DNA of 64,000 nucleotides from Mytilus galloprovincialis (Eukaryota > Mollusca > Bivalvia > Mytilida > Mytilidae): contig NC_134850.1 in assembly GCF_965363235.1 (NCBI RefSeq), positions 37,382,602 to 37,446,601 of the forward strand, read 5' to 3'. The notes beneath the pieces are model-generated. The model saw nothing but the letters and a program-made list of their open reading frames with translations, did no database searches and was not told the origin of the DNA. Both the position numbers and the translations under genes were made by a program. Below are positions 1,061 through 59,205 of the stretch, in pieces (within the stretch, counting starts at the first letter, position 1; every line of letters begins with the position of its first letter).

Positions 1061-3586
1061 CAGTTGTTCCTGAAAAGATAAAAGCAGATATAAAAGATGG
1101 TGAAGTTGGCATTGAATATTTTTTGTTAAAAAGAACCAGCGAGAAATACTTTTTACACACATATATATCTATTTTTTCCACATTATGCCTGAAAAACAAA
1201 TGATGACTTATCATCCAGTAATCCTTCCGAATATGATTGATATCAACAGAAGAAACACATAATACGCATGTACGCAGAAAAAACTGTCAAATGGCCCCTT
1301 TGTCCCAAATTTCAGTGTATAAAATAAACGATTCTGCTATGATTGTGCTTTATAGTACGGTGACCGAGTAAGGTAAAGTCGCTTATTTAAGGAGTTTAAT
1401 TGTCATTTGGACTATACGGCTATAAATCACAGTAGTGGTAGTTCAAAGCTTAAACTCAACATTTTGACATGTCGTCAAAAAATCGAACGGTGCAATTTTT
1501 GTGAAATTGGCTTTTGAGTACGTTAGTTGACTAAAACGAAAAATCGACATAGAAAAGTTTTGAGGTCTACATTGTAAAATTACATCCGTGATATGATTTC
1601 TGTTATTATATGCATTGTTGTTACACCTTTTTTTAACGATTTCAATTAAAGTTTAGCAAAATTAATCCGTTATTAAAGAGTTTATGTAAAAGATTAACAC
1701 TACGAATACCTTACATTTAAGGGAGAACGTTTTCATTCAATTTCATCATGCTTTTTAGCCCAAAATGTTGAATAATTAACATTTATATGATATTTCATAT
1801 ATTTGTATCTTTATTAATTAATAATATCAAATTCATTTATCTCAGAAGCATTATTTCAGCTTACCAAGCCAGACACAAGTCTTTACGTTCATATGACGGA
1901 GCTATTCGAATATCAAATACAGCCTCTTATAGATACATATACGCAATAGGGCTGTGCTGTATCACTTACATTCAAATACTGGGATATGTTCCATGAAGCA
2001 GTAAGCATTTTGCTGTCACATGTAAGAGCAGAACGAGGGGGAAATTGGTCACTTACTAGAGATCGTCATCTCAAATGTAACCTTATGTTTTTGTAACCAA
2101 CAGTACCAATTACTGAAGGTGGATGCCAGTTTACATACTCGATATGCTTCAACTTTCTGAGAATATTCGATCACCTTTTATAGATGGCTACTTTGCTTTA
2201 AGACAGACTACTGGACATTTTAACAGTACATGGACCGACATGGCAGCATAAAATACCATTATAAAACCCTCTAGGGAAACAGGTGGCACTATAGGCATAA
2301 CAAATCAAAAGTCTGCGCTTGTTAGATGGACCCTTACTAGACATTTCCTTGAATCCCTTAGTCGTGTAATGCTGAAAAGGGCTGGAATTGCTGCAAATTA
2401 TGCAAATTCACAAGAGGAAACGAAACCAACAGCAATGAAAAGAGATGAAGAACATGGTATTGCCATTATGAACCATCTGAATGAACCATGATTGATCCCT
2501 TTGGTATGAAATCCCATCCTCCATGTCTTGTCAATATTTCTTCTGGAATGCATGCTACAAGTGATATTTGTGGTTCTTTGCTTACAGCTGTCGAGGTAGG
2601 CTTGAACATGTCTTAACATTTTATCACTAGTGTTCTTTCTTTAGATCAGTCAAGGAGTTTTTATAGTCCAATATCAAAGTCAAAACTAAAAACATTTGAA
2701 AACATGACCACAAAAACAAACCTTGAATATAAATCTGCGGAAATACTTTCGTGTCATATAAATCCATAACTTGTTTTTAGACGTGTACTGATATTGACAA
2801 ATTGTGGAGATGATGTTACCATAGAAAATGAGCTGTCGCAGCCTGTAGGTCCCATTCCAATTTCCCTTTTTCAAGATGACGGTATCATGAGAAAATCATG
2901 CAAGTCGGATTTGGTGAAGCAATTAGAATCTGAAGTCTCTTGTGCACTTTCCCTTCCTTCCTTTGTACCAATACTCACAACTTACATCAGAGATGATATG
3001 ATATTGGTTCAATGTATTGATGTTAAGAAAGGTCAAACATTCGGTGACCTTGCAGCTAACTATAAAAAAATATGTCCAAATGAATTTCTATAGCGCACAA
3101 AGTAGCAGATTTTTTTTTTACCTCTACGACATGAACAACTCTATAAAGTCTGCCGAAAGGGAACGCCGCACTACAGCTTCAACCAAAGTGTATCAGATTA
3201 TTGAGGGGGGAAGTATTCCTGATTGGAAAACTTTGACAAATCCGCTATGATTCCACCTGATGTGAGCTTTACATAGCCAAATATTCTAAATTCCAAAAGT
3301 TATTTATACCATCACTGTTAATGGCCGTCTTCACTTGTTTAGCACTCAAGAGGAGGCCGATTCTTAATGCCATAAACTTTGACACGAAGTTTAGGGAAAT
3401 GTGAAAGAGCGAAAGAACAATCATAACAACCTCTAATACAAATGTGATTGTTCTGTGTGTTCACTACAGTACTATAAATATATGACAAATACAAGCTAGT
3501 TGTTGGTGCAGATGGAGACCATTCACTAACTGTGTGTCTGTCTTTCCCTAAAAATTTGTTAACTATTGCCTGCTGTACATGCAATT

Positions 3587-3735
3587 TTGTTCCTCAATGC
3601 TCTTCAACTTCGTACTTTATTTGGCCTTTTTAACATTTTTTAATTCGAGCGTCACTGATGAGTCTTTTATAGACGAAACGCTCGTCTGGTGTATATGCCA
3701 AATTTAGTCCTGGTACCTATGATGAGTTTATTTAC
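3587..3735 (+). repeat. Hammerhead-bearing (retrozyme-like) repeat fragment
   Basis: This is a partial copy of the about 362-bp unit seen in tandem at 50050-50955, starting in its TTCCTCAATGCTCTTCAAC block and ending in the GATGAGTTTATTT block. It splits the decayed protein region exactly between the residues ...LPAVHA and TGCDTTS..., so its boundaries as an insertion can be read directly. It contains a complete ribozyme core. Confidence 0.75.
3649..3693 (+). ncRNA. Type I hammerhead ribozyme motif
   Basis: All conserved core elements are present in order: CTGATGA, a stem II hairpin (GTCT/AGAC), GAAA, a very short stem III with tetraloop, and the GTC cleavage triplet. Six base pairs (some G-U) form stem I between GCGTCA and TGGTGT. 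The 2-bp stem III is typical of hammerheads in metazoan retrozymes and Penelope-like elements, which cleave best as dimers; alone it is expected to be weak. Confidence 0.7.
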
Positions 3736-10649: not shown

Positions 10650-11160
10650 TTCTTTCAATCTAGTACTGGATGATTAAACGCACGTATGGCGTACAAAATT
10701 TAAAGTCTGGTATGACTCGATGATGACCTTATTAGTTATCCGTTGTTATTCTGTGGTTAAAATATCGAAATGTACTTTATAAACTCATCATAGATACATT
10801 TGTACCAGGACAGAATTTGTATTTATGCCACACTATTATATTAATCATCTGTATTTCTGTATTTGGTATTTTTGCATTTTTAGTACTGTCATGTAATGTT
10901 GTCATTTTAGCGAATATATCTAACAAGCGTGGAGGTATGGTTAGTCATAAAACCAGGTTCAACCAACCATATAGTTTCTTTGATGTTGCACTTCGGTGTT
11001 CTGTTGTTTCGTTGTTTTTCTCTTGTGGTTTGGTTGGTGTGTTTCTCTCGGTTTTAGTTTGTAACGATGATTTGTTTTTTCTATCAATCTATTAATGACT
11101 TTTGAATAGCGGTATATAACTGTTGTCTTTATTTATCATCACCTGATGTGTGATAAGTTT
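10650..11160. repeat. Interspersed mussel repeats (hammerhead-family fragments plus a TAACCCGGATTTG family)
   Basis: About 10665-10740 matches the post-ribozyme part of the hammerhead repeat in plus orientation (GGCGTACAAAATTT) and about 10780-10835 matches it in minus, both truncated and without a ribozyme core. About 10860-11160 belongs to a family with blocks CGGTTTTAGTTTGTAAC and AACTGTTGTCTTTATTTAT, also present near 13560, 24200, 24655 and 32515. The 92-codon open frame here (10817-11095) lies inside the repeat. Confidence 0.7.
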
Positions 11161-23310: not shown

Positions 23311-23639
23311 ACAAGAAAACATGGATCAATGAAGTAGATTTTAGATTTGACGAAAAAAGATTATATGTTATATTATACTTTATCCTGCAATTGGGTGTCT
23401 TTTCATACGTATACATTAACAGCTAAACATATATGCTAGCCTGTATTTGTATACTAAACAGATATTGCTTTAATGCTCAGATCAATGCTGGAATTTTTTT
23501 GTATTGCTGTTGATGAGTCTTGCATTAAAATTCGTGACCTCAGAATGAGTATTGCAATCGCATTCCCATGACGTCTGTGAATGTTTCAGTCTCCGATTAG
23601 CCACCCATTTTCTGCTCATATACAAATAGTTATCATAGG

Positions 23640-24055
23640 TACCAAGATTATGATTTAATACGCCAGACGCGCGTTTCGTCTACATAAGACTCATCAGTGA
23701 CGCTCAGATCAAAAAATTTATAAAGCCAAACAAGTACAAAGTTGAAGAGCATTGAGGATCTATAATTCCAAAAAGTTGTGCAAAATACGGCTAAGGTAAT
23801 TTCTTCCTAGGATAAGAAAATCCTTAGTTTAAAAAAAAATCAAAGTTTTGTAACAGGAAATTTATAAAAATGACCATATAATTGATATTCATGTCAACAC
23901 CAAAGTGCTGACTACTGGGCTGGTGATACTCTCGGGAACGAAACGTCCACAATCAGTGGCAAAGACCCTCAGTGGTGTAAATAGTTATCAAAAGGTCCCA
24001 GGATTAAAATTTTATATGCCAGACGCGCGTTTCGTCTACATAAAACTATGTTAAA
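23640..24055 (-). repeat. Hammerhead-bearing repeat, just over one unit, minus strand
   Basis: One full-length diverged unit plus the start of a next one: the two predicted cleavage sites (near 23666 and 24022) are 356 nt apart, the same spacing as in the tandem array at 50 kb. The unit also contains the block complementary to CACCAGCCCAGTAGTCAGCAC. The second ribozyme lacks its CTGATGA half. Confidence 0.75.
23659..23703 (-). ncRNA. Type I hammerhead ribozyme motif
   Basis: Read on the minus strand: GCGTCA, CTGATGA, stem II hairpin (GTCT/AGAC), GAAA, GCGC loop closed by a 2-bp stem III, GTC and TGGCGTA. The core is complete and the six-bp stem I pairs. Confidence 0.75.
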
Positions 24056-24159
24056 CAAAGCCACAAAACGAGGTTCAAACCACCCATTTTCTTGAAATGT
24101 CCTATACCAAGTTAAGGAAATGGCAGTTTTTCTATTTGTTGCATTGTCGTCTCCTTTGT

Positions 24160-30373: not shown

Positions 30374-30518
30374 CGAAATAACACCTTCATGTCATGCTCT
30401 ATGCTCATTTTAACATGGGAAGGCATTATATTTGTCGATATTTTACACCTCGCTCGACAAATATAATGCCTTCCCATGTTAAAATGAGCATAGAGCATGA
30501 CATGAAGGAATTATTTCT
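30374..30518. repeat. Long near-perfect palindrome (55-bp arms, 15-nt loop)
   Basis: Arms 30384-30438 and 30454-30508 are perfectly complementary, starting CCTTCATGTCATGCTC and ending TATTTGTCGA. Weaker pairing (GAAATAA/TTATTTC) extends to about 30374 and 30518. It lies at the right edge of the Crypton-like insertion. Confidence 0.9.
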
Positions 30519-31859
30519 TAAACAACTCATACAATTATGGATTTTGATGCGCTTGAAAAATGGTTTAAGCATGCTTGCTTATTTTATTTGAAAGTTTCTT
30601 TACAAAGGTGAGACTTTGACGATCATTCGAAAAATGTTAACATTCGTAAACGAGATTTACCTAATCCTTGCTATTTTACTCATACTGAGTAAATACCTCG
30701 AAGTATTATAAATATAATTAAAAAAAACAAGATGTGGTATAATTGCAAATGAGACAACAATCCAACCAAAACTAGATGACGTAAGTAAGATAAACTATGC
30801 TTAATTATATGGAAAAAATAGTGCGCAAAATACGCAAAAATTGCACTCATAACTTCATGTAGGTAACGGAAGGGGAAAACATGTATTTTAATATATATCC
30901 TGCAATCAGCAAACTTTATTTGTTTTTACAAAGAACAGGTACAAAAATAACATTTTGTTTTTGTGTACTTGACACATATAATATTTATTATTATGCTTCT
31001 ATGTTGAGCGACCGATAATTATAATTTTGAAATTGTTCTTTACGTCACATTACATTTGTGAGGATAGCTTCAGCTCAATGGTTAAAGTTTGGGTATTTGA
31101 ATGATTTATAAAACACCTTATCGTAACTTTAGTTCTCCGTTGACACATACATGTATATTAATTATCATGAAACTAACATTTCAATATTTAGGAACGGAGA
31201 ATAATACAAAGCATGTCAGTACCAAAGCTTCCTACTGAATTAATGGTAGTATATTACCCCCATGCTGAGGAATGAAGCCCATAACAGCTAACAAAAACAA
31301 CACTTAATAAATAGGCTTCGTCCGAAGCGGTTTTCCTTGATTAATATGAAAGCAAAAAAAAAAAAAATTGAATGCACAGAATGTATAAATACTGAAAAGA
31401 CTAGGAGCTACATGAAACAACATTATCATCAAAGAACAAAAATATATTAAAGTGTCAACTTTGTCTTCTGGAGTTGGGACCGTAGAATTTTAATAATTTC
31501 TACATTTCTGAACAAAAAATTTAAATCAGGAACTATATCGCTGGAACAAAACGATTACTTTTAGTTGAAAATTAAGTCTAAGATACATATTTGTTGTTCT
31601 TTTGCAATTGCTTAGAAACTTTCCGTATTGAATTTTCCTCGGAGTTAAGTATTTTAATGAATTTACCTATTGCACCATGGGACGGACTGAGAGTACACAT
31701 ACCCGTTCATATCCTATGATTTGTTAACACTATTTAAATCCTATGTATGTCTTATAATTTGTGTTCGATTAGGTTGGTTTATGTAATGTATCCAGTTTTT
31801 TTCTGTAATTAGTTAATACTTCAGTTTTATCATATATATCTTTAAAGTCATTTTATGAA

Positions 31860-32610
31860 ATTTAGTGTTTCCAAAAGTATAAATTATTCTAAATAATAGG
31901 GATGTTCTTGTCCCGAGCAGGAAACCCTAGCCGTATTGGGGACAGCTTTTTGAACGTTTGGTCCTCGGTGCTGTTCAACTTTGTACTTGTTTTGGCTTTC
32001 GAACTTTTGTATCTGGGCGTCACTGGTTGGTCTTTTGTGGACGAGACTCACTTCTGGCGTATTGAATTTTAAACCTGGTGCCTTTTGTTAGCTATTATTT
32101 GTGCATTTCTTTGTCCAATATGTTCTCCTATTTATTTGTATTGTAGTCCTGTGATGTTATGTTATCATTTAAATGTTGTGTTTAACATTGCCATTAAGGA
32201 GGGAGGTTCGGCATGTCTTTAAGAAATGTCCTGTACCAAGTCAGTAATATGGCCATTGTTGTATTGTGGTTCGTTTCTGTGTGTGTTGCATTTTAGCGTT
32301 GTGTTACTGTTGTGTCGTTTGTTTCCTCTTATGTTTGAGTGTGAATTCACATTACTATAAGACGTGGCACGGTACTTTTCTATCCAAAATTCATGTATTT
32401 AGATTTGATGTGATATTTGCTATTCATATCGGATTTTGTCTAACGCTTAGTTCGTTTCTGTGTGTGTTACATTTTATTGTTGCGTCGTTGTTCACTTGTA
32501 TTTAATGCGTTTCCCTCGGTTTTAGTTTGTAACCCGGATTTTGTGTTTTTTCTATCGATTTATGAGTTTCGAACAGCGGTAAACTACTGTTGCCTTTATT
32601 TATAAGTTGA
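31860..32610 (+). repeat. Composite interspersed repeat with a degenerate hammerhead and the TAACCCGGATTTG family
   Basis: 31905-32085 is a diverged hammerhead-repeat piece (GGTCCTCGGTGCTGTTC, then a ribozyme site at 32016-32061 whose core no longer matches). It continues into GTCCTGTGATGTTATGTTAT, AATGTCCTGTACCAAGTCAG, CACGGTACTTTTCTATCC and the TAACCCGGATTTTG / CTACTGTTGCC terminus at 32530-32600. The order seems fixed in mussel genomes, suggesting one long element. No coding frame. Confidence 0.6.
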
Positions 32611-36490: not shown

Positions 36491-37654
36491 AAACAATCAT
36501 AATAGGTCACATATGCTGAAAAGGGTTAATTGCAAATTTACTCCGTTAATCGATTAGACTTTACCTTTCGATGAGAGCTGAATATTGGAAGTTATTGTTT
36601 TATCCATTCGGTAGCTAGCTTTTAATTGTTCGAAGTTAAATCTTTGTACATATACTCTTTTAATTGCACTAACTCAACTTATCTTTAATTGACCACTGCT
36701 TCCCTTTTATACAAATTAAAAATATTGACACAAAGATAATAAAAAAAATCTATTTAAATAACCATGCATAAGGATATAAGACCTTCTTTTCAGAAACATT
36801 TCTTACAGAATGAAAAAAATCAAAATGACTTATGATTTTTTTTTGGATGGCTTCATATTTATATTTTTATAGTACCAACACCTATGACTACATCGACAAA
36901 GATTGCCTTTCTTGCATATCTGTCCAAAACTATTGGTAGCCTTGGAAGTCATCAACCTATAGAATACTACCAAGTGTTGTTGAATGACGGGAATGGTTTC
37001 GATGTACGCCATGGACATTTTACTGCTCCAACTACTGGAGTATATGTCTTATCAGTCAGCATTTACACAGAGAGTCATGTCGAAATATTTTTAGATCTGC
37101 TTAGCAATGGTAATCTTGTAATTTCTTTCTATGCGGATGGCAGAACTGACCATGCTTCTCAAACCAATACGTTTCCGATGCTTCTTAAAGAAGGAGATAT
37201 GGTTTGGTTACGCGCTACACAAGGAACGGAAGGTCGCCAGTTGTATGGAATTAAAAGCTATCTTCTTAACTCGTTTTGTGAATATCTACTTTATTCAACA
37301 TAACACGTCATTAAAAAATATTTAAAAATATAGCGTCTTCATTGACAGTGATTGTTTTAGTATATTCATAAATATGATTGCTATATCGCATTATTTATTG
37401 TGTTGTGATGGAGTGATTTGATGGATTGAATGATTTTGATTTTACTAACAAAAAAGAAAAATTTCCCTCAAAATGAACTTACATTGTATTTTGCGATTTA
37501 TCCAGTTTGTCATCATCTACGGTCGGTCATGCTTATCTTACAATGAAATATGTAATCAAAATCATAAAGGAGACACACACAAGATTTTTTCGGGGCTACA
37601 CAATATACATCGAATGATTTCTTATTTATAATAGATAATCGATGAATATCCCAT

Positions 37655-38290
37655 TTCCTTTCTTTGTATGTTATGGTGGATACCCCATATCCTTGATTTG
37701 TGTGTTATGGATGGATACCCCGTATTCTTTCTTTGTTTGTCATGGACGGATACCCTATCTATATTCTTTCTTTATGTGTCATGGATGGATACCCATATTC
37801 TTTCTTTGTGTGTTATGGACGGATACCCCATATCCTTGATTTGTGTGTTATGGATGGATACCCCGTATTCTTTCTTTGTTTGTCATGGACGGATACCCTA
37901 TCTATATTCTTTCTTTATGTGTCATGGATGGATACCCATATTCTTTCTTTGTGTGTTATGGACGGATACCCCATATCCTTGATTTGTGTGTTATGGATGG
38001 ATACCCCATATTCTTTCTTTGTGTGTTATGGACGGATACCCCATATCCTTGATTTGTGTGTTATGGATGGATACCCCATATTCTTTCTTTGTGTGTTATG
38101 GACGGATACCCCATATCCTTTCTAAGTGTGTTATGGGTGGATACCCCATATCCTTTCTTTGTGTGTTATGGACGGATACCCCATATCCTTTCTAAGTGTG
38201 TTATGGGTGGATACCCCATATCCTTTCTAAGCGTGTTATGGGTGGATACCCCATATTATTTCTTTTTGTGTTATGGATGGATAAACCATT
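37655..38290. repeat. Minisatellite, about 35-bp unit with a 143-bp higher-order repeat
   Basis: About 18 imperfect copies of a unit around GGATACCCCATATCC, TTTCTTTGTG, TGTTATGGA. A block of four units repeats with 143-bp spacing (37700, 37843, 37986). Because 35 is not a multiple of 3, the array is open in several frames, which produces stacked false ORFs (YGWIPHILSLCVMDGYP). Not coding. Confidence 0.95.
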
Positions 38291-39444: not shown

Positions 39445-42400
39445 TTACAGTGAATACAAGAGTACAGCGGCAAACATGTTATGCTGGATTTTAGGGCTTC
39501 CATACAAATATTCACTTTCGAATCCAGGATGTGTTCTAACCCAAACCATATCTCCTTTCTGTAGAACAACTGGAAAAACTTTGGTCTGTGATGTATACAT
39601 ATTGCCACCATGCCCATCCGCATGTAGAACGTCAATCTGGATACCATTTACCACAATATCTAGTCCAATCTGTTTAGATGGCACTGCAAACCCACTGAAT
39701 GAAAACAGATACAACCCATTAAGTGGAGATATGAAATGTCCATGTCGGGCGTCATACGCATTGCCTTCGTTTAATGGAACATTGTCATATTCAACTATCT
39801 GGTGTACTCCTAGGCTACTAATGGGTTTAGACGTGTATGCTCTGAATGCAACGTGTTGTACAGCATCTGGAGCTGGACCTGAAACATAACAATATTTGTA
39901 AACAAAATATCGTCCTATTAAGTGTAAAGAATAATCGTGCAATTTGTTTCAACGTACAAATTTTAAAAAACACACCTATTTTGTATTAAATATTTACTAC
40001 TTTCTGGTATGTCGTTTCAGACCGGGTGCGAATAAGCGGTGTATCACAACGAGAAACGATATTTACTTTTTTCATTGTAGCTTAGGTAGCCAATACAAAG
40101 TTCAGAGGAAAACTAGTCTGAGTTGTTGTAATGAATATGATTGTTTTCCCCAAAGCATAATATTCGAATATCAACAATATCCTTACATTTAAACAGATTT
40201 AGACTAAATGAGCTGGCATTGGAATAACAGCCAAAATATATAATTAATGCTAAACATACTGCCCAACAAAAGCCTCTTTTTGAAATCTTTCCCAATTGAG
40301 TCAATCCCTGATTTTATATTGACATCTTGTTTGATATCTCTCGGTTTGACCATCCTTAAACTCTGGTTTGGTGTTGGTACCAAAGTGTTATTACTGGATG
40401 AACGTTTTTGATTTCCTTGCATTTTGAAATTTGTTTTACCATCTGCACCACAGACGGTACTCAAACACATGTGTAAAACTGTTCTGGTGTGGTCGTTTTC
40501 CTTTTTAAGATCGTAATTTTCCTTCTCTAAACGCTCCATCCTCTTTTCAAGAAAATCTATTAAACAATAAAAAATAAACCGATTATTCATCATGTATCTC
40601 AAAATACATACTTATCTTCGCTGATAGTAAAATAATTTCAAAAAAGTTTTGTATCACTTTACAGGGGCCTTGTTCTTCTTAAATGCTTGAAATTAATTTG
40701 AGTATATCATTATATCATTAGTTGGAGCAAAGTGTTTTGCAGAATTGGTATAATGATATAGGAAGATGTGGTATGAGTGCTAAATATTAACCATAGCACA
40801 ATAACGGGATGTATAAGTACCAAGCACATAACATAGATATAACCAACAAATGTACAGAAACGACATCAAGTTTTTTTATATTCCAATGTGTACTTTAATA
40901 ATGTACCCATTTTATAATGGATTTGTTTCTTCGACATTAAGAATCTCTATTATGTCTAAATATAACTTTTTAATAATTTTTAAATATTAACTAACGTTTC
41001 CGCCCAAAATCAAACCTTGAAATATATAACAATGTGTTTGTGTATTTGTATTTCCACTTATAAGATAATTACTAAACTCAATCTCGAAAATGTGCTATCT
41101 TCTTCCCTAGAACTTGATATACCGGTAATATTTTTTTGCATGCACTAGGTTGATGCCGCTGCTGTTGGAGGTTTCGACCCGACAGTTTCACCAGTCCAGT
41201 TGTCAGTACTTTTGTGTTGACACGAATTGTCATAGATTTGGTCATAATTATAAATCAACTGTTTAAAAAAAATCTTTCAATTGTTCTAAATACTAAGGAT
41301 GTTCTACCCTAGACATAGACCACTTTAGCTGTATTGTGCAATACTTCTCAATGTTCTTCATTTTGGTACAGTTGTTTTGCATTTTTTACATTTTTTATTT
41401 CGAGCATCACATGGTGAGGCTTTTGTAAACGAAACGCCGTCTGGTGTATAAAATTTGAATCTTGGTATTTATTGATATATGTATATTTCTTGGTACTTGA
41501 TACAAATGACCTACGGAAGAACAATTTATATAATTTATATGTTTGTTTTTTTTAAATAACTTGCGTGTAATGTACATGTACGTACAGTGATGTGTTTTGT
41601 GTTATGAAGAACGTTATTGGTAGTTAAGGTCGTTACAAACCTTCCTCGTCGTGTTAACAAATTATTCGCAAAATTAAGGAATGGAGGTCAGTCTGAGAAC
41701 TACATGTAAATAAACTCAGACGCATCTTATGTTAGGACGTCCTAAACATATCCTATGTGCGAAATCCTAAATAGTTAAAGTAATTGTTTGATAAAACATT
41801 TATTAGAGATGAAAACAATTAATAAATTTGTTTACCAAATTTTGTAATAACAAGTATTTAATGAAAATAAAATGCATGATTTCAAATGTAGTTATAAAAT
41901 AAAATCAAAATAGGATTTTGATATTAACTGTAAAACAAGTTGCTTTCTTTAAAAAAAGAAATGCAATCGTAAACCCAAATGCTTGTTTGGCATTATATAA
42001 GAAAATTGTTTAATAAAGACGTATATTGTTTTATATTACTTTTGTTGTATAAGAATTAGAAACTGACATTGATTGTTTACTTAATGTAACACCGGCGTCA
42101 CACATCAACGTATAGCTCCGACGTACGTCGGCCGTGGTAAAAAAATCATGCACGCTACCAATACGCTAGTAATTTTGGATGCATTCAACCTGTCAATCAT
42201 ATCTGTATCGTGTGCACAACGAGCTTAAAGCGTGTATTGGGCGTGCGAAAAGCGTACCTACGCGTTTATCTGGCGTTCAGGTGACGAGTGTTGGCGTATG
42301 TCAGGCGTATGTCTAACGTAGATGGAATGGACGCTACGAAGGAAAAAAGTATATTGAACGTATTTGAGACGTGTCCCGGTCATATCTGGAACGATAATCT

Positions 42401-44068
42401 ATGCTTTCGGAGTTTCTGGGACATGATGGGGTGTTTGTTTTAGTTAAAGTCTAACGATTTTGAAGCGTATACAACGTGCCCTTACCGTGTCTCAAACTTA
42501 TCTGTAGCGTTTTCAAAGCCCTTATAGTGTGTATATTTTGTGCGTGTATCGTACAGGTGTACGCTTGACACACGCTTGAGCTGAATGAGTTTTTTATGCT
42601 CCATAAAAATTTGCTGGAGTAAAAGCGTTCACCAAGCGTATACCTTTGCATTTCGACGTACTTCAAACTTATGCAACGCACGTTTAACGCTTGCTTAAGC
42701 GTTCCTCTGGCGAGCAACTAAGTTACGTATACGGACTTTACGCCGACCATGTTAAGTCTGCTAAAATTGCATGCATGATTAATTTTAAGGTTATCAGTCT
42801 TAATTAAAGTGGCACATTTAATTCGTTGTTTAATTGCTTGAAGTGTTATTTCTTACATCTGCATGGTCAAAAGTATTTTTTTAAATATATTTTAGATTTA
42901 GATTTCAGGTTGTCTTTTTCATCTTGAATACCAACTTATCAGTCACATTTTAATGACGAAAAGGATCCAGAGGTTATGTGACCTCATAGTTTTAATAAAA
43001 AGTAGAAAATGTTGCAATATTTAAACAAATCCGCGTTTTTTACACCTATTCGAGACACGTATTTTAGATTATGTATACACGTCTTCGTCTATCATAGACG
43101 TAAAATTTCAAGAAAGTGCAAGAAAGACTTCCTTTTAATTTCAGTATGAAAAAAAAATAGCCTGCTTTGTACATCATGCACATATTCCCTAGACCCGTAA
43201 TCTTAAATGAAATGATAATGATTATTAATATTTCTTTTAAAGATTTTAGTTAATAAATCTCGTTTCGAATATAAATCATATTGCTTACATGAAATCTTAT
43301 CTCATATCACCTTAACACAGCTGGTTTCAACGATTGATATTATAAATTATGATTCATATGTAACATATCTCTATAGCAACTTTAAGATGTTCATGCTTCT
43401 TCAACAGGTCAATTAATAAGCTATTGTGCATGTATATGCAAGGTGGCCATGGAAAGAACAGATGTATTCAGAATAATATCCGGTGTTCCGAAAGACTACG
43501 GACATCGTCCAATATATACTTTTTGTTTTAAAATGAGAATATTGAATTCGTAGTGTCATCGTATCGTAAACACACGAAGGTCAAAGTTTAAAATCATGCA
43601 CAATTTTCTTTATACGAGTTAATAACCGATGGTGCGTCTCTTTTCACGTTCATCTTAACGTAAACAAATGAGAAAAAAGCATGCACAAAGTTAGGATGAA
43701 GATAAGATGATCTTAAGACACCTAATTAGGTGTCCTAAAGTTAGGACGAACATGTGATATATCCTAAGTTAACAGAGCTTCGATAACACGACTTAGGACA
43801 AAGACTTGTCATAAGATGGTCTTAGGACACGTCCTAATCCTAAGATAGCTTCCAGGACTATTTTTTTTATATACGCCAGACGCGCGTTTCGTCTACAAAA
43901 GATTCATCAGTGACGCTCGAATCCAATAAAGTTTAAAAGGCCAAATTAAGTATGTAACTTACCAAGTCGTTGTAAAATAACATCATTCGCAGTATCTGTA
44001 GTAAGTGCATTACAGCATTTATGCCATATTTGGAAAACACACACAAGAACAACAAACAATTTAATCAT
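39445..44068 (-). CDS. C1q-domain-containing protein (gene E), 3 exons, 278 aa
   Basis: Minus-strand exons 44068-43963, 40556-40260 and 39878-39445, phase-1 junctions (gtaagt/tttaatag, gtatgt/tgtttcag), uninterrupted frame. Exon 1: signal peptide MIKLFVVLVCVFQIWHKCCN and VILQRLG, again 106 nt. Exon 2: DFLEKRMERLEKENYDLKK coiled coil (about 37-62), a Cys-containing loop (CLSTVCG), and a basic end FKKRLLLGS. Exon 3: linker PAPDAVQ, then the C1q head VAFRAYTSKPISSLG, NEGNAYDARHGHFISP, GLYLFSFS, VVLQKGDMVWVRTHPG, MFAAVLLYS. A minus-strand AATAAA lies just downstream (about 39433). Secreted and likely oligomeric. Intron 1 (3.4 kb) is filled with repeats. The alternative ATG at 44149 would add 27 residues before the signal peptide and is rejected. 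Confidence 0.9.
41138..41500 (+). repeat. Diverged hammerhead-repeat unit in gene E intron 1
   Basis: Approximately one whole unit: CACTAGGTTGATGCCGCTGC, TTTCACCAGTCCAGTTGTCAG, TAGCTGTATTGTGCAA, then a ribozyme-derived site (41404-41449) that keeps GAAAC and GTCTGG but no longer has a proper CTGATGA half. Confidence 0.65.
41700..43855. repeat. Candidate composite element: TTAGGAC palindromes around a CGT-rich block
   Basis: 41710-41775 carries TTAGGACGTCCTAA and 43690-43855 a cluster of CCTAA/TTAGG inverted motifs (GGTCTTAGGACACGTCC, TCCTAAGATAG). Between them 42087-42755 is strikingly CpG-rich for the region, full of ACGT/GCGT words, with weakly inverted ends (TAACACCGGCGTCA and TAACATGGTCGGCGTAA). 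No clear terminal repeats or target duplication for the outer element. Confidence 0.4.
43872..43916 (-). ncRNA. Hammerhead ribozyme motif in a truncated repeat
   Basis: The minus strand has CTGATGA, a stem II hairpin with its first pair weakened, GAAA, the CGCGC loop region, GTC and TGGCGTA, with stem I to GCGTCA. The flanking repeat ends about 25 bp beyond on both sides, so it is an orphaned fragment just downstream of gene E exon 1. Confidence 0.65.
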
Positions 44069-47842: not shown

Positions 47843-50045
47843 TTAATAAATTAGAACTGACAGTTTTCCTGTCGATTGCCGTAGGTTCTCTTCAGATAAT
47901 TCCTTCGTATTCCACAAATAAAAACTTGCAACCACACAATAGTCAGTATTGCCGAAGGTGGGGTTTAACACCAAAAAAAGATATCAATCAATCGATGTAA
48001 AGAAGACTGTTGTCTGCTCTATGGTTGGGATGTTGTCGCTTTGACACATTCCCCATTTCCTTTCTCAATTTTATGCGTTGATTTCCAAAAAAAAAAATAG
48101 TTGTTTGCATTTTTGAATGATAATTTCACAAATCGTTCAGTTTTAAATTATTTTTAGTTCAATGAACCATTTCAACCATATAAATGGTTTCTCGTTACTG
48201 ACAGTAAGAAACCATTGATCAGCAAGTAAGAAACATATATAAATAATGTCAAAACACCAATATTGAGTGCGAGATATATGCATACGTTTGATATCTTTTT
48301 TTTTTTTCGTTTGAACAGATTTTTGTGGATTGAGAGAATATTGTATTTTCGTAGATATTTGATTTCGTTGTTTTGTACCCGTCTGTTTACAAGCTTAATT
48401 TAAATGTCTACCTCGTTGAACATCTATATTCATGGTTAACATCTAACTGAAATTTACGAAAATTGGTATCCAGCAAAATAAAGTTAATCCATAGAAATAA
48501 ATTAAAAATGTCTATAACAGAAAGGTAAGCATAAGTATGCGAACCAGGGTCATATTTTTCCATCAACCAGGAATAGGGTTTTATCCGCCATTTAATGGAA
48601 AAGTTATTCAGACTTTGTAACAAGATGGATAGATACTTAATAAAAACACAAGGTAGTCGAGACACAAAGAGACACAAAGAGAACGCCGAATCGATTAGAA
48701 AACTGAAAATGCAGACGGAGAAAAACAAGTAGTTGTAAAAAATCGACAATTCTCTTACTACAATTTTATACTTGACATTCAATACAACGTGATATGAAAC
48801 TAGGCAAGGACCAGCTTGAATGAAATATTAATTTCTTAAAAACCATGTCTGTAGTTCTTTCAGACAAAATTGAAGAACATATGAAGCTGGCAATATTCGT
48901 ATCTAGTGTTAAAAAAAGAAATGATTCGTATTCATATTGACAGACAGCAGTACAGATACATCAGTAACAGAACAAGAAAGTGTTTTGATCAGATATGTTC
49001 ACCCTGAGACACACGAACTAGTTAAGGAATGACAACTTAACTTCAAAGGAAGGAGGTATGGGTTTTTTTTGTCTAAAAAGATATGATTCCCAGTTTGATG
49101 AAGAAACAAGTGTGGGGGGCAGGCAGATGACAAACGAATTTATTTGAAACCAGATTTTCCAAATAAATCAAAGTCTTAACTATTGGGGGAAATTATTTTA
49201 CTGAGAGGGTGGAATTTTCGCAAAAATATTTCAGACTCATCCGAGAAACATTACACTCATTCCCACTGTGAACTTAAATGGTTGCTCCCTTACTTCGTCT
49301 GCTAGTATTGAAAATATGGGAAATGTAAATGCAGATGGTGTATATACTACAATAAAGTCAGGTGTGTAAAAGTGTGTCTGACATTGGGTAATAATGAGGT
49401 TGAAGGTCACCAAACAATTATCTGTGTAAACATAGCTGGTGTAGATGTCAATTAATTATTTGTTAAAATCAGGAAACAGACATGCAACTCACAAAAGAGG
49501 GACAAAAGATACTAGAGGGACAGTCAGACTCTTAGATTGAAAATAAACTGACAACGCTAAAAAAAAAAAAAAGACAAACAGACAAATAATAGTACAGAAG
49601 ACTCAACATAGAAACCTAGAAACTAAGCAACACGAACTCCACCAAAACCTGGGGGTGATCTCAGGTGCTCCGGAAGGGTAAACAAATCCTGCTCCGTATG
49701 TGGCACCAGTCGTGTTGCTTATGCTATTAAAAATCCGATAAATAGTCTAATTCGGTAGGTCACATTGGTGACAACGGAAGGGTATTGTAGTTCTGGCATA
49801 AGGAATATATCCGATATCATCTGTAAAACGGTTATTCCATAACGGTCAACAAACTCGTGATGGAGTCCGTTAAATTTAGGAAGGGATGATTTCTCTTGGT
49901 TGAATGGCGTCTGTGTGAGCAGCAATCCTCTATCAAGGAAATAATGATAGAAAATACAAGCGCTGGAATATCGTATCAAATGGGGGACATATACTCCGTA
50001 GTCAACATAGTCACCAATTTTTGCGTTATTTAGTGAGAGAACATC
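47843..50045. other. Intergenic, no supported gene
   Basis: About 48000-48080 is a piece of a common mussel repeat (GTTGTCTGCTCTATGGTTGG, TTGACACATTCCCCATTTCC). A 124-codon minus frame (48782-48408) is hydrophobic and AT-driven with no recognisable domain. A poly-A run lies at 49559-49572. Nothing else stands out. Confidence 0.55.
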
Positions 50046-50140
50046 ATCTATATAGCAAAACGTAAAGTTTTAGGAATTTTGGTCCTCAATGCTCTTCAAC
50101 TTCGTACTTTATTTGGCCTTTTTAACTTTTTTGGATTCGA

Positions 50141-50186
50141 GCGTCACCGATGAGTCTTTTGTAGACGAAACGCGCGTCTGGCGTAT
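50141..50186 (+). ncRNA. Hammerhead ribozyme, array copy 1 (core altered)
   Basis: Same fold as the middle copy, with stem I GCGTCA/TGGCGT, stem II GTCT/AGAC and GTC cleavage triplet, but the CTGATGA box is altered, so activity is doubtful. Confidence 0.65.
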
Positions 50187-50501
50187 ATACAAAATTTAGT
50201 GCTGGTATCTATATGAGTTTATTTACAACCACTGGGTCGATGCCACTGCTTGTGGAGATTTATTTCCCCGAGGGTATCACCAGCCCAGTAGTCAGCACTT
50301 TTGTGCTAAATTGAGTTATCATTGATATGGTTAAATTTATAAATTAACTGTTTAAAAAATTTTGAATTTTTGAAATACTAAGGCTTTTCTACCTCAGGCA
50401 TAGATTACCTAAGCTGTATGTGGCAAAACTTTTAGGAATTTTGGTCCTCAATGCTCTCCACCTTGTACTTTATTTGGCCTTTTTAACTGTTTTGTATTCG
50501 A

Positions 50502-50547
50502 GCGTCACTGATGAGTCTTTTGTAGACGAAACGTGCGTCTGGCGTAT
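50502..50547 (+). ncRNA. Hammerhead ribozyme, array copy 2 (core intact)
   Basis: GCGTCA, CTGATGA, GTCT-TTTGT-AGAC hairpin, GAAA, C-GTGC-G stem-loop, GTC, TGGCGT. All catalytic-core positions match the consensus; stem III has only two pairs (A-U, C-G). Confidence 0.8.
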
Positions 50548-50863
50548 ATACAAAATTTAGTCCTGGTATCTATGATGAGTTTATTTACAACCACTGGGTC
50601 GATGCCACTGCTTGTGGAGATTTATTTCCCTGAGGGTATCACCAGCCCAGTAGTCAGCACTTTTGTGCTGACATGAATTATCATTGATATGGTTATATTT
50701 AAAAATGAACTGTTTACAAAATTTTGAATTTTTGAAATACTTAGGCTTTTCTACCTCAGGTATAGATTACCTTAGCTGTATTTGGCAAAACTTTTGGGAA
50801 TTTTGGTCCTCAATGCTCTTCAACCTCGTACTTTATCTGGCCTTTTTAACTTTTTTTGATTCG

Positions 50864-50909
50864 AGCGTCACTGATAGGTCTTTTGTAGACGAAACGTGCG
50901 TCTGGCGTA
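50864..50909 (+). ncRNA. Hammerhead ribozyme, array copy 3 (core altered)
   Basis: Stems and the GAAA and GTC elements are kept; the CTGATGA box is changed, so this site is probably inactive. Confidence 0.65.
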
Positions 50910-51072
50910 TATACAAAATTTAGTCCTGGTATCTATGATGAGTTTATTTATAGGATATTGCTAACTTCTTATTTTTTTTCCTAAGAAGTTCCTGTATGAA
51001 GCCAGCCTCATACATTTTTTTTCTAATAACAAAGAAACAATTAGGCAAGAAGAGGGGCACAATTTTATCTAT

Positions 51073-51440
51073 TATAAAAAAAGAAGATGAGGTATAATTG
51101 CCAATGAGACAACTCTCCACAAGACACCAAAATGACACAGAAATTAACAACTATATGTCACCGGACGGCCTTCAACAGTTAACAAAGCCCATACCGCAAA
51201 GTCAGCTATGAAAGGCCCCGAAATGACAATGTTAAATATTTCTAACGAGAATACTAACGGCCTTATTCATGTACAAAAAAATGATCGAAAAACAAATATG
51301 TAATACATAAACAAACGACAACCACTGAATTACAGGCGCCTGACTTAGGACAGACACATACATACTTAATGTGGCGGGTTTAAACATGTAAGCGGGATCC
51401 CAACACTCCCCCTAATCTGGGACAGTGCCTGTATTGTTTT
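51073..51440 (+). repeat. Interspersed repeat (GAAGATG...GAGACAACTCTCC family)
   Basis: Blocks AAGAAGATGAGGTATAATTG, CAATGAGACAACTCTCCAC, GGCCTTCAACAGT, CTATGAAAGGCCCCGAAATG and ACTTAGGACAGACACATACA parallel 22262-22700. No coding content. Confidence 0.7.
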
Positions 51441-51799
51441 GTTTGCACATCGTTGACACAAACTTCATGTAATAGCAACTGACGACGCTGTTGTTGGTCA
51501 TCCTTGAGAAAGAGATGTAAGGCAACTTTTGCAGGTCTGAGTTAAGTCACTTGAATGAGTAGAAGCTGCAATTTAAGAGACAAACTAAAAGAAATTGCTA
51601 ATAAACGATCTCACTGGATCAGATCAGTGATGATCGATTGAAAAAGCTTTATATTTTCATGACTCTTAAAGAAACAAAATAGAAATTATATTGACATTTT
51701 AGTGTATTCAATAAAATGTGTTGATTTATTTCAAATAACATTATTCCAAATGTCTCATTATCACTGGACTAGTATATATTTTGCTTTATTCAAACATCG

Positions 51800-52000
51800 T
51801 TGTCAATATAATGGAGTTTTAATGCGACTGTCATATAAGTGGTAGGTTTAGCTAGCTTTAAAATCAGGTTTTATCAACCATTTTTACACAATAAAAAGGC
51901 CTGTACCAAGTCATGAATATTAAAGTTGTTATTCATTCATTTGATATGTTTTGAGCTTCTAATTTGCCGTTTGATTAAGGAATCTTCCTCGTAGTTTTTT
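51800..52000 (+). repeat. Interspersed repeat (GACTGTCATACAAGTG family)
   Basis: TCAATATAATGGAGTTTTAA, GCGACTGTCATATAAGTGG, TAAAATCAGGTTTTATC and GCCTGTACCAAGTCATGAAT match 45880-46110. Confidence 0.7.
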
Positions 52001-52538: not shown

Positions 52539-53428
52539 TTACTCAACATTTTTGATACAGTATCCAGAGAATGTATTGTACACTCCTGTTGGTTGTCCAG
52601 CTGATCCGGAAAGTTTGGCAGCGTCCGTTTTACTTCTGACCCAAACAGAATCACCCTTATTTAACATTAGAATTAAAGTTTGTGTCATCGCTGAATTCTG
52701 ATGTCCACTTCCATCAAGATACAAGTCTACCAGCGAAATGTTATTTTGTACAATTTCCAGAGTAGGTGACACATGATAAAAATTAAAGGCAGTAGCAGTA
52801 ATCAGATATAATCCTTTTACCGATGCAGTAAATTTTCCGCTTTGTAAACTGTAACCATTTCCGACATTGGTCAAAACCTTATCAAACACTAGGGTCTGTT
52901 GCGCATCAATAGTCAAGGTCTTTTGTAATGCCGTTGAAAAGGCCGCCGGAAGATTGGATGGTGTTGAATTTTCTACAATACAAATCATTTAAATGCGTCA
53001 GATATTAATCATGCAACCAAATTCATGCGTTTTCTTGTGCTGAAAAAGATCATGGCCATATTTGAAATACTACATTTCTAAAGTTTTTTTTTATTGAGTC
53101 GTCTCTATATTTTGTCAATTCATTACATATTGGGTAGTGCGTAGGATGAAATAATTATGGTGTACACCTATAACAGTTACCGCTCCGACTATTAGTACTT
53201 CAAAGCATATCTGTTCAATTGAACTCACAAAACGCGAAAAAAAAATTAAAATAGCAAGTATTCTACCTGGGGAATAAATATGTAATTAAACTATGAATTA
53301 AACCTGCCAGCTGAGCCTAAGTTTTTTTTTGCTGTGCAAAACACTCATGCCATAACATTTTATTAATATAGAAAGTCAAAAGGTTTCACATTTATTTTGT
53401 ATTTCAAATTAAGATGAGATTAGATCAA

Positions 53429-56749: not shown

Positions 56750-57832
56750 TTATTTGCGTATTTGCTTGCAAAATTGGCCGCATTTGTTAAACTTTTGACG
56801 TAAACAACACGATCCATAAAGTACCTTCAGATTTCGTTGGAATCGGTTATCAGTGAAACCATAGATAAAAGGATTAGTTACATTATTGATCAAGATCAAT
56901 CGAATCCCAAAATGATACAGGATTTGTTCATGATCACTCATTTTCGTTTTGAATGAAGGTTGGCTGCTAATATAGGCAGTGAGAATGACAAATGGGAGGA
57001 ATACTATTACAAAAAGAAATGAAATAATCAAAAGTGTTTTAGTAGTCTTCAAACTTCCCTTAAACGAAGACGGAATATTTGATAACCTCAAACTTGAATT
57101 TGATTTCATTTCTGACGACGTCACCGTTGATGTTATCCTATCGGAATCGAATCTCATAATACTATTACGTCGCTTTAAAATTGTTCTAGTAATCAAAGCA
57201 TATGCAACGCTGATAATGGCGGCAGACATGACGAATCCGAAACATAACATTGCATATGTAGCGAGGAGAAAAGACGAATCCCTGTATTTGTCGGCAATGA
57301 AACAATCCACACCGGTCACATTGTGTTCAAATTGTATCTTATGGTTGCCGTTCAACATTAACATCGGTATTGAGAAAATGATGGAAACAAGTATCGCATA
57401 TGAAATTATCCATTTGGCCTTACTTGTTGTCATTTGTAGGGTTAACGGTCGACATATTCTATTATATCTTTCAATAGCTATTAACACTAGAACTGCTATA
57501 GAAATTGTTAGTAATACTATTTGATTAAATCTAAATACTCTACAACCATTTGTTATGAACCAAGAGTAGGGTACCAGCAAGTCAACAATTTCTAATGGCA
57601 TATGAACAACACATGTCACTAAATCTACTACTGCTAATATTTTTACGAAAAGCGGGTAAGTTGAATTCCTATCTGACATATTCCGAAAGACAACCAGTAC
57701 ATGAAGGTTACCAACGATTCCGACTATGCCACAAATATTACAACAGGCATACGCCGCTGTATCATCTTCTCGATCACAAAATTCATGATGTCGGTTGAAT
57801 TTGTCATGGTAACAAATAGCCAGAACAGCACA
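56750..57832 (-). CDS. Rhodopsin-family (class A) GPCR, orphan; N-terminus suspect
   Basis: A large minus-strand exon from a 3' splice site (CCTTTTTTCAG, exon from 57832) to a TAA at 56750-56752. Numbering from the frame's nominal start (57853): GN in TM1 (48-49), Asp77 in TM2, Cys104, ERY (128-130), ECL2 Cys in VDCFIADKY, a long basic third intracellular loop, TM6 with VFLPFVIL (no CWxP), NPFIY (327-331), and a Cys-rich basic tail. It is a paralogue of the receptor at 1-1060. Oddity: a better receptor start, MTNSTDIMNFVIEKM at 57807 with an NST glycosylation site, lies in a different frame, which runs to a stop at 57724-57726 just as TM1 begins. This suggests a one-base indel near 57740 or a null or erroneous allele. 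The same-frame N-terminus (CYHDKFNRHHEF) looks unlike a receptor. Confidence 0.8.
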   Translation of the reverse strand, partial: CAVLAICYHDKFNRHHEFCDREDDTAAYACCNICGIVGIVGNLHVLVVFRNMSDRNSTYPLFVKILAVVDLVTCVVHMPLEIVDLLVPYSWFITNGCRVFRFNQIVLLTISIAVLVLIAIERYNRICRPLTLQMTTSKAKWIISYAILVSIIFSIPMLMLNGNHKIQFEHNVTGVDCFIADKYRDSSFLLATYAMLCFGFVMSAAIISVAYALITRTILKRRNSIMRFDSDRITSTVTSSEMKSNSSLRLSNIPSSFKGSLKTTKTLLIISFLFVIVFLPFVILTAYISSQPSFKTKMSDHEQILYHFGIRLILINNVTNPFIYGFTDNRFQRNLKVLYGSCCLRQKFNKCGQFCKQIRK

Positions 57833-58539
57833 CTGAAAAAAGGAAATAAACATTCGTATCTCGATTTTTTAACAATAATGTTTATCATAGAGAGCGTAAA
57901 CGTATTTGTTCTTCAATTACGATAGAAAAAAAATCACTTCATAGTAAGTAATTATTAAAAACTGGAATTAAGGTCATACAAATTGGGGGACAAATCTTTT
58001 CACTCTCAATAAAAAAAACATTTACGAAAAAAAAGGATCCAGGTTATGCAGAAAATTTCTTCTGTATTTTTTCCTCTGGAGATTTGTAAAAAATATTTTT
58101 TGGTTCATCTATTTTCATTCATAAGTGCGTGTACCAAGCCAGAACTATGAGCGGAAATAGCCACTAATAATGAGCAGCTTTTCAAAAGATTTAAATGTAC
58201 ATATTCTTTAAACTGTCAAAACAAATAGAATCCTCAAAATGATGATATGTATCGTATTATATGAAAATAATAGTTTAGCTCATTATTGAAAGCCAGATGG
58301 TGGCACATCCGAAACGTTTGTCTGGATTCACTTTCATCAGGACACTCAAACCTGAAAATTAGTTAATTTATCAACGAAGAATTTATTGGAAAATATGATA
58401 TATACGTCATGTCAGTACTGAATATACTACTGAGCTGATAATACAACCGTGGAATAACAGTCCCACTATCAAAGTATCTACTTACTGCTAGTAAATGAAA
58501 TTTACACTTTATATATTGTATGTGTCTAACGTACAAAGT

Positions 58540-58625: not shown

Positions 58626-59205
58626 TGTATATCTGCGTCCATTCGTTTTTCGTTTTGAAATATCATAAACAAAAAACAAAAAACGAAAGTGTTTTCATTT
58701 TTTGTTTTTGATTTCTTAAAAACCAAAATGAAAAACGAAAATGTTTTCGTTTTTCATTTTTGATTTCACAAAACAAAACTGAAAAACAAAAGTATTTTCA
58801 TTTTTCATTTTTGATTCTCAAAATCTAAAATCGAAAAATGAAAGTGTTTCCATTTTTCATTTTTGCTTGTATATCTGCGTCCATTCGTTTTTCGTTTTGA
58901 AATATCAAAAACAAAAAACAAAAAAACGAAAGTGTTTTCATTTTTCGTTTTTGATTTCATAAAAACCAAAATGAAAAACGAAAGTGTTTTCATTTTTCGT
59001 TTTTGATTTCTTAAAAATTAAAATGAAAAATAAAAGTGTTTTCGTTTTTCGTTTTTGATTTCACAAACAAAAAACGAAAAACAAAAGTATTTTCATTTTT
59101 AAATTTTGATTTCTCAAAAACTAAAATCGAAAAATGAAAGTGTTTTCATTTTTCATTTTTGATTTCACAAAAACAAAAAACGAAAAACGAAAGTGTATTT
59201 ATGTT
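58625..59205. repeat. A/T-rich palindromic satellite
   Basis: About ten imperfect units, each with GAAAAACGAAAGTGTTTTC and CATTTTTCGTTTTTGATTTC, which are inverted relative to one another so each unit can fold on itself. A larger block starting TGTATATCTGCGTCCATTCG repeats at about 58628 and 58869 (241 bp). Low-complexity frames here are not genes. Confidence 0.9.

What the first reader, a model, noticed from the sequence alone, without database searches (positions are those of the whole stretch)
50050..50955. Retrozyme-like array: 362-bp non-coding units punctuated by hammerhead ribozymes
Three ribozyme sites in the same orientation sit 361 and 363 nt apart. The middle one has a complete core (CTGATGA, GAAA, GTC) with pairing stems I and II and a 2-bp stem III, the form that works as a dimer. 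This is the expected layout of a metazoan retrozyme, whose transcripts self-cleave to unit-length RNA and circularise. A single-unit circRNA of about 362 nt is predicted.
Basis: partly seen in the sequence, partly recalled or inferred. Interest (0 to 1): 0.85.

Follow-up and report, generated by a model that had tools for sequence, protein, structure and literature searches.

The report
Decayed mussel-type retrozyme array
This is a worn-out copy of a small self-cutting RNA element of a kind already described in mussels; the useful extra is that most of its relatives in this stretch of DNA stop at the same point just past the ribozyme, which hints at how such elements are copied into the genome.

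Summary
In detail: 2.4 units of about 362 bp lie at 50064-50950, with three same-strand hammerhead sites 361 and 363 nt apart. Only the middle ribozyme has an intact core; the first carries U4C, the third has G8 and A9 changed. This locus alone is therefore unlikely to release the predicted 362-nt circle. Rfam type I hits exist but lie below gathering score. Type I hammerhead retrozymes of about 350-390 bp, expressed as circRNA, are published for Mytilus galloprovincialis (PMC7229834), so this is a degenerate member of a known kind. What I add: the window holds six more clear dispersed copies and one marginal one. In 6 of 7 clear loci the similarity stops 45-49 nt past the cleavage site; the seventh stops at 30-39. 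Their 5' ends are scattered. One of 8 loci has a perfect 13-bp flanking repeat. A fixed 3' end with variable 5' ends, up to 2.4 turns, fits target-primed reverse transcription from one internal point on a circular or concatemeric RNA, resembling the internal start shown for a Penelope-like element (PMC11167929). Template form and helper enzyme are inferred, not shown.

The parts
50064..50950 (+). whole retrozyme array, 2.4 units; the first about 6-12 bases may belong to the target (5' edge perhaps 50070-50076)
   Evidence: TRF, the repeat finder; flank reading
50141..50184 (+). hammerhead copy 1, core CCGATGA (U4C), cleavage site after 50178
   Evidence: RF00163 29.4 bits, below gathering 34
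50179..50539 (+). unit 1, 361 nt
   Evidence: cleavage-site positions
50502..50545 (+). hammerhead copy 2, intact core, cleavage site after 50539
   Evidence: RF00163 29.8 bits, below gathering 34; pattern hit
50540..50902 (+). unit 2, 363 nt
   Evidence: cleavage-site positions
50864..50909 (+). hammerhead copy 3, core CTGATAG (G8, A9 changed), probably dead
   Evidence: sequence; no Rfam hit
50903..50950 (+). last 48 nt after the third cleavage site; its end point is shared with most dispersed copies
3583..3735 (+). dispersed copy, 5'-truncated, intact hammerhead core (3655-3679)
23614..24079 (-). dispersed copy, about 1.2 units, between perfect 13-bp direct repeats AGAAAATGGGTGG (24080-24092 and 23601-23613); first hammerhead partly missing, second with intact core (23673-23697)
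41131..41485 (+). dispersed copy, about one turn; hammerhead core broken
43845..43952 (-). dispersed copy, 5'-truncated, core CTGATGA (43886-43910); its 3' match stops early (phase 30-39)
31827..32100 (+). dispersed copy, divergent, core broken
10779..10833 (-). dispersed copy, only the 3' terminal part; starts near the cleavage-site phase
10676..10737 (+). marginal eighth copy, 3' terminal part only
   Evidence: nhmmer 17.8 bits, E 9.3e-5, against a best of 6.4 in 10 random windows; pairwise score 23.5 against a maximum of 22.5 in 400 control stretches
49719..50069 (-). probable C-terminal part of a decayed reverse-transcriptase ORF (motif NFTFCYIDDVLSLNN) abutting the array's 5' edge
   Evidence: no Pfam, NCBIfam or PDB support
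50947..51060 (-). probable upstream part of the same RT pseudogene, abutting the array's 3' edge
   Evidence: reading frames, sequence; motif-level inference and recall only

Best explanation
The array is one old insertion of a non-autonomous metazoan retrozyme with type I hammerheads, of the kind published for mussels. Proposed life cycle: some intact genomic copy is transcribed, the hammerheads cut the RNA into units, and a host ligase closes the circle (cleavage and circles shown by others for Mytilus, not here). A reverse transcriptase supplied in trans then starts at one internal point 45-49 nt downstream of the hammerhead cut, primed on broken target DNA, and runs around the circular (or uncut concatemeric) RNA for a variable distance. 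This leaves insertions with a common 3' end, ragged 5' ends and lengths from about 0.13 to 2.4 turns. Shown here: the repeat, the ribozyme motifs, the dispersed copies, the clustered 3' ends, one 13-bp target-site duplication. Inferred: the circular template, target priming, and a Penelope-like helper. This particular copy is decayed and probably cannot make its own unit circle.
For: Array and ribozymes. Stems hold in 95.2% of 104 cells over 8 hammerhead sites, against 16-52% when slid. Copies. 3' ends at phases 45, 49, 48, 47, 34, 47, 45 in 7 clear loci, uniformity rejected (0 of 200000 draws as concentrated); 5' ends at 246, 260, 335, 41, 290, 139, 361, compatible with uniform (82594 of 200000). 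With three templates and three of the four schemes, 46 of 63 end points fall at 43-49. Perfect 13-bp direct repeat around the 23616 copy, with no other occurrence in the window. Published mussel retrozymes of about 350-390 bp with circRNA. A Penelope-like enzyme starts reverse transcription internally, at sites that match genomic 3' ends.
Against: No Rfam hit at gathering. Isolated 61-nt folds do not give the hammerhead as MFE and are no better than shuffles: 132, 55 and 165 of 200 shuffles fold at least as well. Circular folds of the units (-73.5 and -76.3 kcal/mol) are not clearly more stable than 60 mononucleotide shuffles each (means -73.6 and -73.2, sd about 5). Covariation is weak: one compensatory change, reached by 127 of 500 shuffles. 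Only 1 of 8 loci has a clear target-site duplication; its control frequency of 0.0026 is for one locus, so about 0.02 over 8. The 43840 copy ends early (30-39), and end points shift with template and scheme: 17 of 63 lie outside 43-49. A weak partial relative at 58402-58500 covers phases 38-139 and does not share the 3' end. In the array 2 of 17 variable columns group copies 2 and 3 against copy 1 and the relatives, and one groups copies 1 and 2 against copy 3 and the one relative present, which copies of one circle would not predict. No helper RT was identified by any library.
Confidence: 0.76

Rival explanations
1. Same retrozyme family, but the inserted template is an uncleaved linear concatemer transcript rather than a circle; the hammerhead is not needed for the insertion step. 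(A variant within the best explanation, so the odds overlap.)
For: In the Penelope-like element PAc, ribozyme mutants insert normally and unprocessed RNA appears to be the dominant substrate in vitro. Two of 17 variable columns in the array group copies 2 and 3.
Against: Mussel retrozyme RNA is mostly circular in the tissues tested by others. The window data do not separate the two.
Confidence: 0.35
2. The helper is a LINE-type reverse transcriptase, with the last tens of nt acting as a LINE-like 3' tail, rather than a Penelope-like enzyme. (Also overlaps with the best explanation.)
For: The 13-bp direct repeat and 5' truncation are LINE-like; 15-bp TSDs of Nematostella hammerhead repeats were compared with LINEs by Cervera and others (passage).
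Against: By eye no poly-A or microsatellite tail at the 3' ends. The start lies inside the circle, as in a Penelope-like element. Above the level of random windows the tail model matches only the retrozyme copies; but no LINE or PLE was identified in the window to compare with.
Confidence: 0.25
3. Ordinary satellite-type tandem repeat, or tandem repeats inside a Helitron-type element, expanded by DNA recombination; the hammerhead is a relic.
For: The array is a short tandem repeat with decayed ribozymes.
Against: Dispersed single and partial units with a mostly common 3' end, in both orientations, with unrelated junctions, and a 13-bp target-site duplication in one. Helitron ends were not searched for.
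Confidence: 0.07
4. This exact locus is active and yields a 362-nt circRNA.
For: Middle ribozyme core intact; copy 1 differs by one core base.
Against: Copy 1 U4C and copy 3 G8/A9 changes; units 6-7% diverged, so probably old.
Confidence: 0.07

Closest known systems
Mytilus galloprovincialis non-LTR retrozymes (Cervera and de la Pena 2020, PMC7229834)
   Same: type I hammerhead, about 350-390 bp units in short tandem repeats, low GC; about 5000 hammerhead copies reported
   Different: sequence identity could not be tested (supplement not available); this copy has 2 of 3 ribozymes damaged. What I read (abstract, sections 13, 14, 17, other passages) does not describe a fixed 3' end
Penelope-like elements with minimal hammerheads (PAc of Anolis, PMC11167929; Adineta Penelope, PMC3846280)
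   Same: hammerhead near the reverse-transcription start, internal start downstream of the ribozyme cut (PAc), partial tandem copies, 5' truncation, TSDs of 8-10 bp in some Adineta copies
   Different: PLEs are autonomous and code for RT, mostly with an endonuclease; the hammerhead is minimal. In PAc the most common start is 85-92 nt past the cut by my arithmetic (111-118 minus 26), with a second start separated by a 30-40 bp tail, so perhaps 45-62 nt; here 45-49 nt
Plant LTR retrozymes (PMC4918200, passages)
   Same: non-coding retroelement with hammerheads and circRNA intermediate
   Different: type III hammerheads, LTRs, PBS and PPT, 4-bp TSDs; here type I and no LTRs seen

Membership tests
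metazoan non-LTR retrozyme | type I hammerhead in each repeat unit | tested here: met
   Hammerhead_1 hit for 2 of 3 sites, both below gathering score; the third is recognisable by eye but broken and not hit
metazoan non-LTR retrozyme | short direct tandem repeat of about 150-450 bp, from dimers upward | tested here: met
   361 and 363 bp
metazoan non-LTR retrozyme | low GC (below 45-50%), no coding capacity | tested here: met
   array GC 36.8%, window 32.8%; no stop-to-stop ORF of 100 aa or more lies within 50070-50950
metazoan non-LTR retrozyme | no LTR, PBS or PPT | tested here: inconclusive
   no LTR-like pair in 49000-52000 beyond the units themselves; PBS and PPT not searched for
metazoan non-LTR retrozyme | mobile: dispersed copies, with TSDs longer than 4 bp when present | tested here: met
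   six further clear copies; 13-bp TSD in 1 of 8 loci; only an ambiguous 5-bp TAGGA at the array itself
metazoan non-LTR retrozyme | expressed as unit-length linear and circular RNA | not testable with these tools
   no RNA-seq available
metazoan non-LTR retrozyme | self-cleavage in vitro | not testable with these tools
   published for another Mytilus copy, about 0.1 per min
Penelope-like element | RT plus (mostly) GIY-YIG ORF | tested here: not met
   the array is non-coding; all 35 stop-to-stop ORFs of 100 aa or more in the window scanned with Pfam at E 0.01, no RT or GIY-YIG family among the hits; shorter ORFs not scanned with Pfam apart from the 38-aa piece
plant LTR retrozyme | type III hammerhead in LTRs | tested here: not met
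   type I fits the array copies best; no LTRs seen. One dispersed copy, 3646-3684, scores best with the type III model, below its gathering score

The most novel reading that the evidence does not exclude
Metazoan retrozymes carry a fixed reverse-transcription entry point 45-49 nt past the hammerhead cut, just before an ACAACCAC stretch and a possible stem-loop. A Penelope-like enzyme primes there on target DNA and rolls around the circular RNA, so genomic tandem arrays are direct records of the number of turns. The hammerhead's role would be to make the circle that lets a short RNA yield full and multi-unit copies.
Probability: 0.33. Interest if true: 0.62.

Novelty: new member of a known kind. 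Interest (0 to 1): 0.4.

Why it matters
The retrozyme itself adds little to what is published. The shared 3' end matters because a 2020 review says that metazoan retrozyme repeats show no conserved motif that would help deduce which autonomous element moves them. A fixed start point would be such a signature, and it turns an open question (which enzyme, and circle or concatemer) into a countable prediction for any mussel genome.

Tried and rejected
Whole-genome search was not possible: no genome is held for this window. Scans for more copies elsewhere failed: exact motif patterns found 0 in viral contigs (4 pattern scans) and 0 in genome contigs (2 scans). A protein scan for relatives of the RT-like ORF in viral contigs confirmed none (2 stretches matched a pattern, neither a relative). 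Identification of that ORF by Pfam, NCBIfam, PDB and phage tblastn gave nothing useful: a CATSPERE hit at E 0.003, below its cutoff, and 3 phage records at E 2-7. The RT reading rests on motifs and recall. Text searches for literal nucleotide or peptide strings found 0 papers.

Alignment schemes: of six distinct ones, two lenient ones (5,-4,-10,-4 and 1,-1,-2,-0.5) ran on into unrelated flanks for most loci and were not used for end points. One strict scheme (2,-3,-6,-2) put the 3' ends at 25, 49, 37, 34, 34, 8 and 45, i.e. cut several tails short; I read this as divergence, but it is a result less favourable to a single end point. In the other three schemes the 23616 copy gave 37 to 59 and the 31827 copy 28 to 47 depending on template, and the 10779 copy did not align sensibly to the divergent 23616 unit. 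The first hammerhead alignment misplaced the 41131 copy and was redone; the truncated first site of the 23616 copy and the two tail-only copies were left out of it. The stem-loop just 3' of the start point holds in 86.8% of 76 cells against 27-41% when slid, but no compensatory change, no gain over shuffles (500 of 500 as high) and only 4 sequences, so it is a suggestion only. The 5' end of the 10779 copy near the cleavage phase could mean run-off on a cleaved linear unit, but it is one case and I did not test it.

Papers. PMC7229834: abstract, sections 13, 14, 17 and passages. PMC7761336: section 9 and passages. PMC11167929: abstract, whole main-text section and passages. PMC3846280, PMC6155905, PMC10886601, PMC4918200: passages only. 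PMC4209133 is not held. All other papers: search listings only. I saw no description of a fixed 3' end of metazoan retrozymes in what I read, nor in the titles and abstract openings listed; most subscription papers and all supplements were out of reach, so absence from print is not established.

Full report
Observation. The array is real. TRF gives 50064-50950, period 362, 2.4 copies, 93% matches, and the repeat finder gives spacings of 361 and 363. Cleavage-site cytosines are at 50178, 50539 and 50902. Rfam at gathering finds nothing in the window; at relaxed threshold the type I model hits copies 1 and 2 with 29.4 and 29.8 bits against a gathering score of 34. The window's other hammerhead hits are 23660-23703 (33 bits, type I), 43873-43916 (28.1, type I) and 3646-3684 (34.5, type III model, gathering 48.5), all below gathering. 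The pattern CTGATGA-N4..24-GAAAC is found 4 times against 0.26 expected.

State of the ribozymes. Copy 2 has the intact core CTGATGA, stem II, GAAA, a short stem III and GTC. Copy 1 has U4 changed to C. Copy 3 reads CTGATAG, with G8 and A9 changed. That such core changes cripple hammerheads is recalled knowledge. To release a unit two working sites are needed, so this locus probably cannot do it alone. Across 8 hammerhead sites in the window (3 in the array, 5 dispersed) the three stems hold in 95.2% of 104 cells, against 16-52% for slid partners; one pair in stem I shows a compensatory change, G-C to A-U in the 41131 copy, a level that 127 of 500 shuffles reach. Single-strand folds of 61 nt around each array site do not return the hammerhead as the best fold and are not better than shuffles. 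Circular folds of the two units are 63-64% paired and not clearly more stable than mononucleotide shuffles.

Dispersed copies. BLAST and nhmmer inside the window find six other clear loci: 3583-3735 (+), 23614-24079 (-), 41131-41485 (+), 43845-43952 (-), 31827-32100 (+), 10779-10833 (-). Five of them stand far above chance; the 55-bp 10779 fragment scores 18.4 bits (E 6.4e-5) with a tail model that included it in training. A marginal eighth at 10676-10737 (+), not in the training set, scores 17.8 bits, E 9.3e-5, against a best of 6.4 in 10 random windows, but only just above 400 control stretches by pairwise score, 23.5 against 22.5. It lies 41 bp from the 10779 copy in the opposite orientation, in a region with inverted similarity, so the two may not be independent. 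A weak partial relative at 58402-58500 (-), 11.5 bits against a best of 5.0 in 12 random windows, covers only phases 38-139. Other nhmmer hits with E above 0.4 that fall outside these loci were dropped as chance-level.

End points. Counting phase from the first base after the cleavage site, the 3' ends are 45 (array), 49, 48, 47, 34, 47 and 45. With three templates and three of the four schemes, 46 of 63 end points (8 loci, each template's own source left out) lie at 43-49. The 43840 copy gives 30-39 throughout; the 23616 and 31827 copies give 37-59 and 28-47 with some choices; the 10779 and 10676 copies are unstable when the divergent 23616 unit is the template. A strict scheme shortens several tails (25, 49, 37, 34, 34, 8, 45), and two lenient schemes run into the flanks and say nothing. 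For the seven values, no equally concentrated set arose in 200000 uniform draws; the 5' ends (246, 260, 335, 41, 290, 139, 361) are compatible with uniform. In a same-strand comparison of 300-base flanks, only three pairs match, all at 60 or more bases from the junctions, so these look like separate insertions. The 58402 relative, if it is one, does not fit.

Target sites. The 23616 copy lies between perfect 13-bp repeats, 24080-24092 and 23601-23613, with no other occurrence in the window; a random-flank control reached 13 in 0.26% of 5000 draws, about 2% when eight loci are tested. The stretch between the upstream repeat and the first match can be aligned to the unit with a deletion across the first ribozyme. 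The other seven loci show no significant repeat; the best is 8 bp at 41131, reached in 7% of control draws. The array has an ambiguous 5-bp TAGGA at 50071-50075 and 50951-50955, which may be chance.

Where the array sits. On the minus strand, sequence abutting the array's left edge reads NFTFCYIDDVLSLNN, and sequence abutting its right edge reads NCAPLLA.LFLCY and, in another frame, YEAGFIQELLRKKNKKLAIS. These look to me like the motif B and motif C regions of a retroelement reverse transcriptase, split by the array. No library confirms it, so this is a motif-level inference supported by recall; which class of retroelement is not known.

Mechanism. A common 3' end and ragged 5' ends are the mark of reverse transcription that starts at one template point and stops anywhere (established knowledge of target-primed retroelements). 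Because the start lies 45-49 nt past the ribozyme cut, a cut linear unit could give at most about 49 nt; six of the seven clear loci are longer and cross the cut site, so their template was joined there: a circle or an uncut concatemer. The seventh (10779) starts about at the cut. The three array copies differ mostly one at a time (odd one out: copy 1 six, copy 2 six, copy 3 five of 17 columns), as expected for copies of one template that diverged later; but at 2 columns copies 2 and 3 share a state against copy 1 and the relatives, and at 1 column copies 1 and 2 share a state against copy 3 and the one relative present.

Known work. Cervera and de la Pena report about 5000 copies of a type I hammerhead in M. 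galloprovincialis, usually in repeats of about 350-390 bp, cleavage at about 0.1 per min, and abundant circRNA. They suggest that circles, target-primed or primed by a small RNA, are copied by the enzyme of an autonomous element, with Penelope-like elements as a strong candidate; a later review says no motif helps deduce the helper. Frangieh and co-workers show that a Penelope-like protein starts reverse transcription internally at two adjacent sites matching genomic 3' ends, most commonly 111-118 nt into the ORF, with the hammerhead cut at 26 nt, and that ribozyme mutants still insert. The layout here is similar: a start point a few tens of nt past the cut. This is analogy, not proof.

Organism. 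No tool named the species. Five stop-to-stop ORFs in the window match the C1q domain, which suits a bivalve (recalled), and the retrozyme fits the mussel description.

Mended: the number of alignment schemes, the strict-scheme values, the spread of end points (now 46 of 63), the array's own GC, the TSD figure over eight loci, and the palindrome's identity. Confidence in the best explanation was lowered from 0.78 to 0.76 because of the spread of end points.

Noticed in passing
8998-9459 (+), 21246-21683 (+), 36836-37303 (+), 39445-39948 (-), 52539-52988 (-): Five C1q-domain ORFs, a C1q gene cluster of the kind expanded in bivalves (recalled).
   Followed up: no
56750-57868 (-): 372-aa ORF matching the rhodopsin-family 7-transmembrane receptor domain.
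   Followed up: no
58300-58500 (-): Weak relative of the retrozyme's central domain (phases 38-139), followed about 60 nt later by a CTGATGA (58340-58334) that is hammerhead-like but degenerate. Possibly a second retrozyme family; it does not share the 3' end.
   Followed up: partly
10676-10737 (+) and 10779-10833 (-): Two 3'-terminal-only retrozyme fragments facing each other 41 bp apart.
   Followed up: partly
30375-30517: 143-bp palindrome, arms 88% alike, MITE-like; it gives sub-threshold mir-302 hits on both strands.
   Followed up: no
37641-38283: Minisatellite with 35-bp unit and 143-bp higher-order unit.
   Followed up: no
18661-20408 and 25627-27389; 24167-24616 and 24621-25069: Duplicated stretches (84% over about 1.8 kb; 95% over about 450 bp in tandem).
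   Followed up: no
58626-59205: Array of about 52-bp units that also shows inverted similarity to itself.
   Followed up: no
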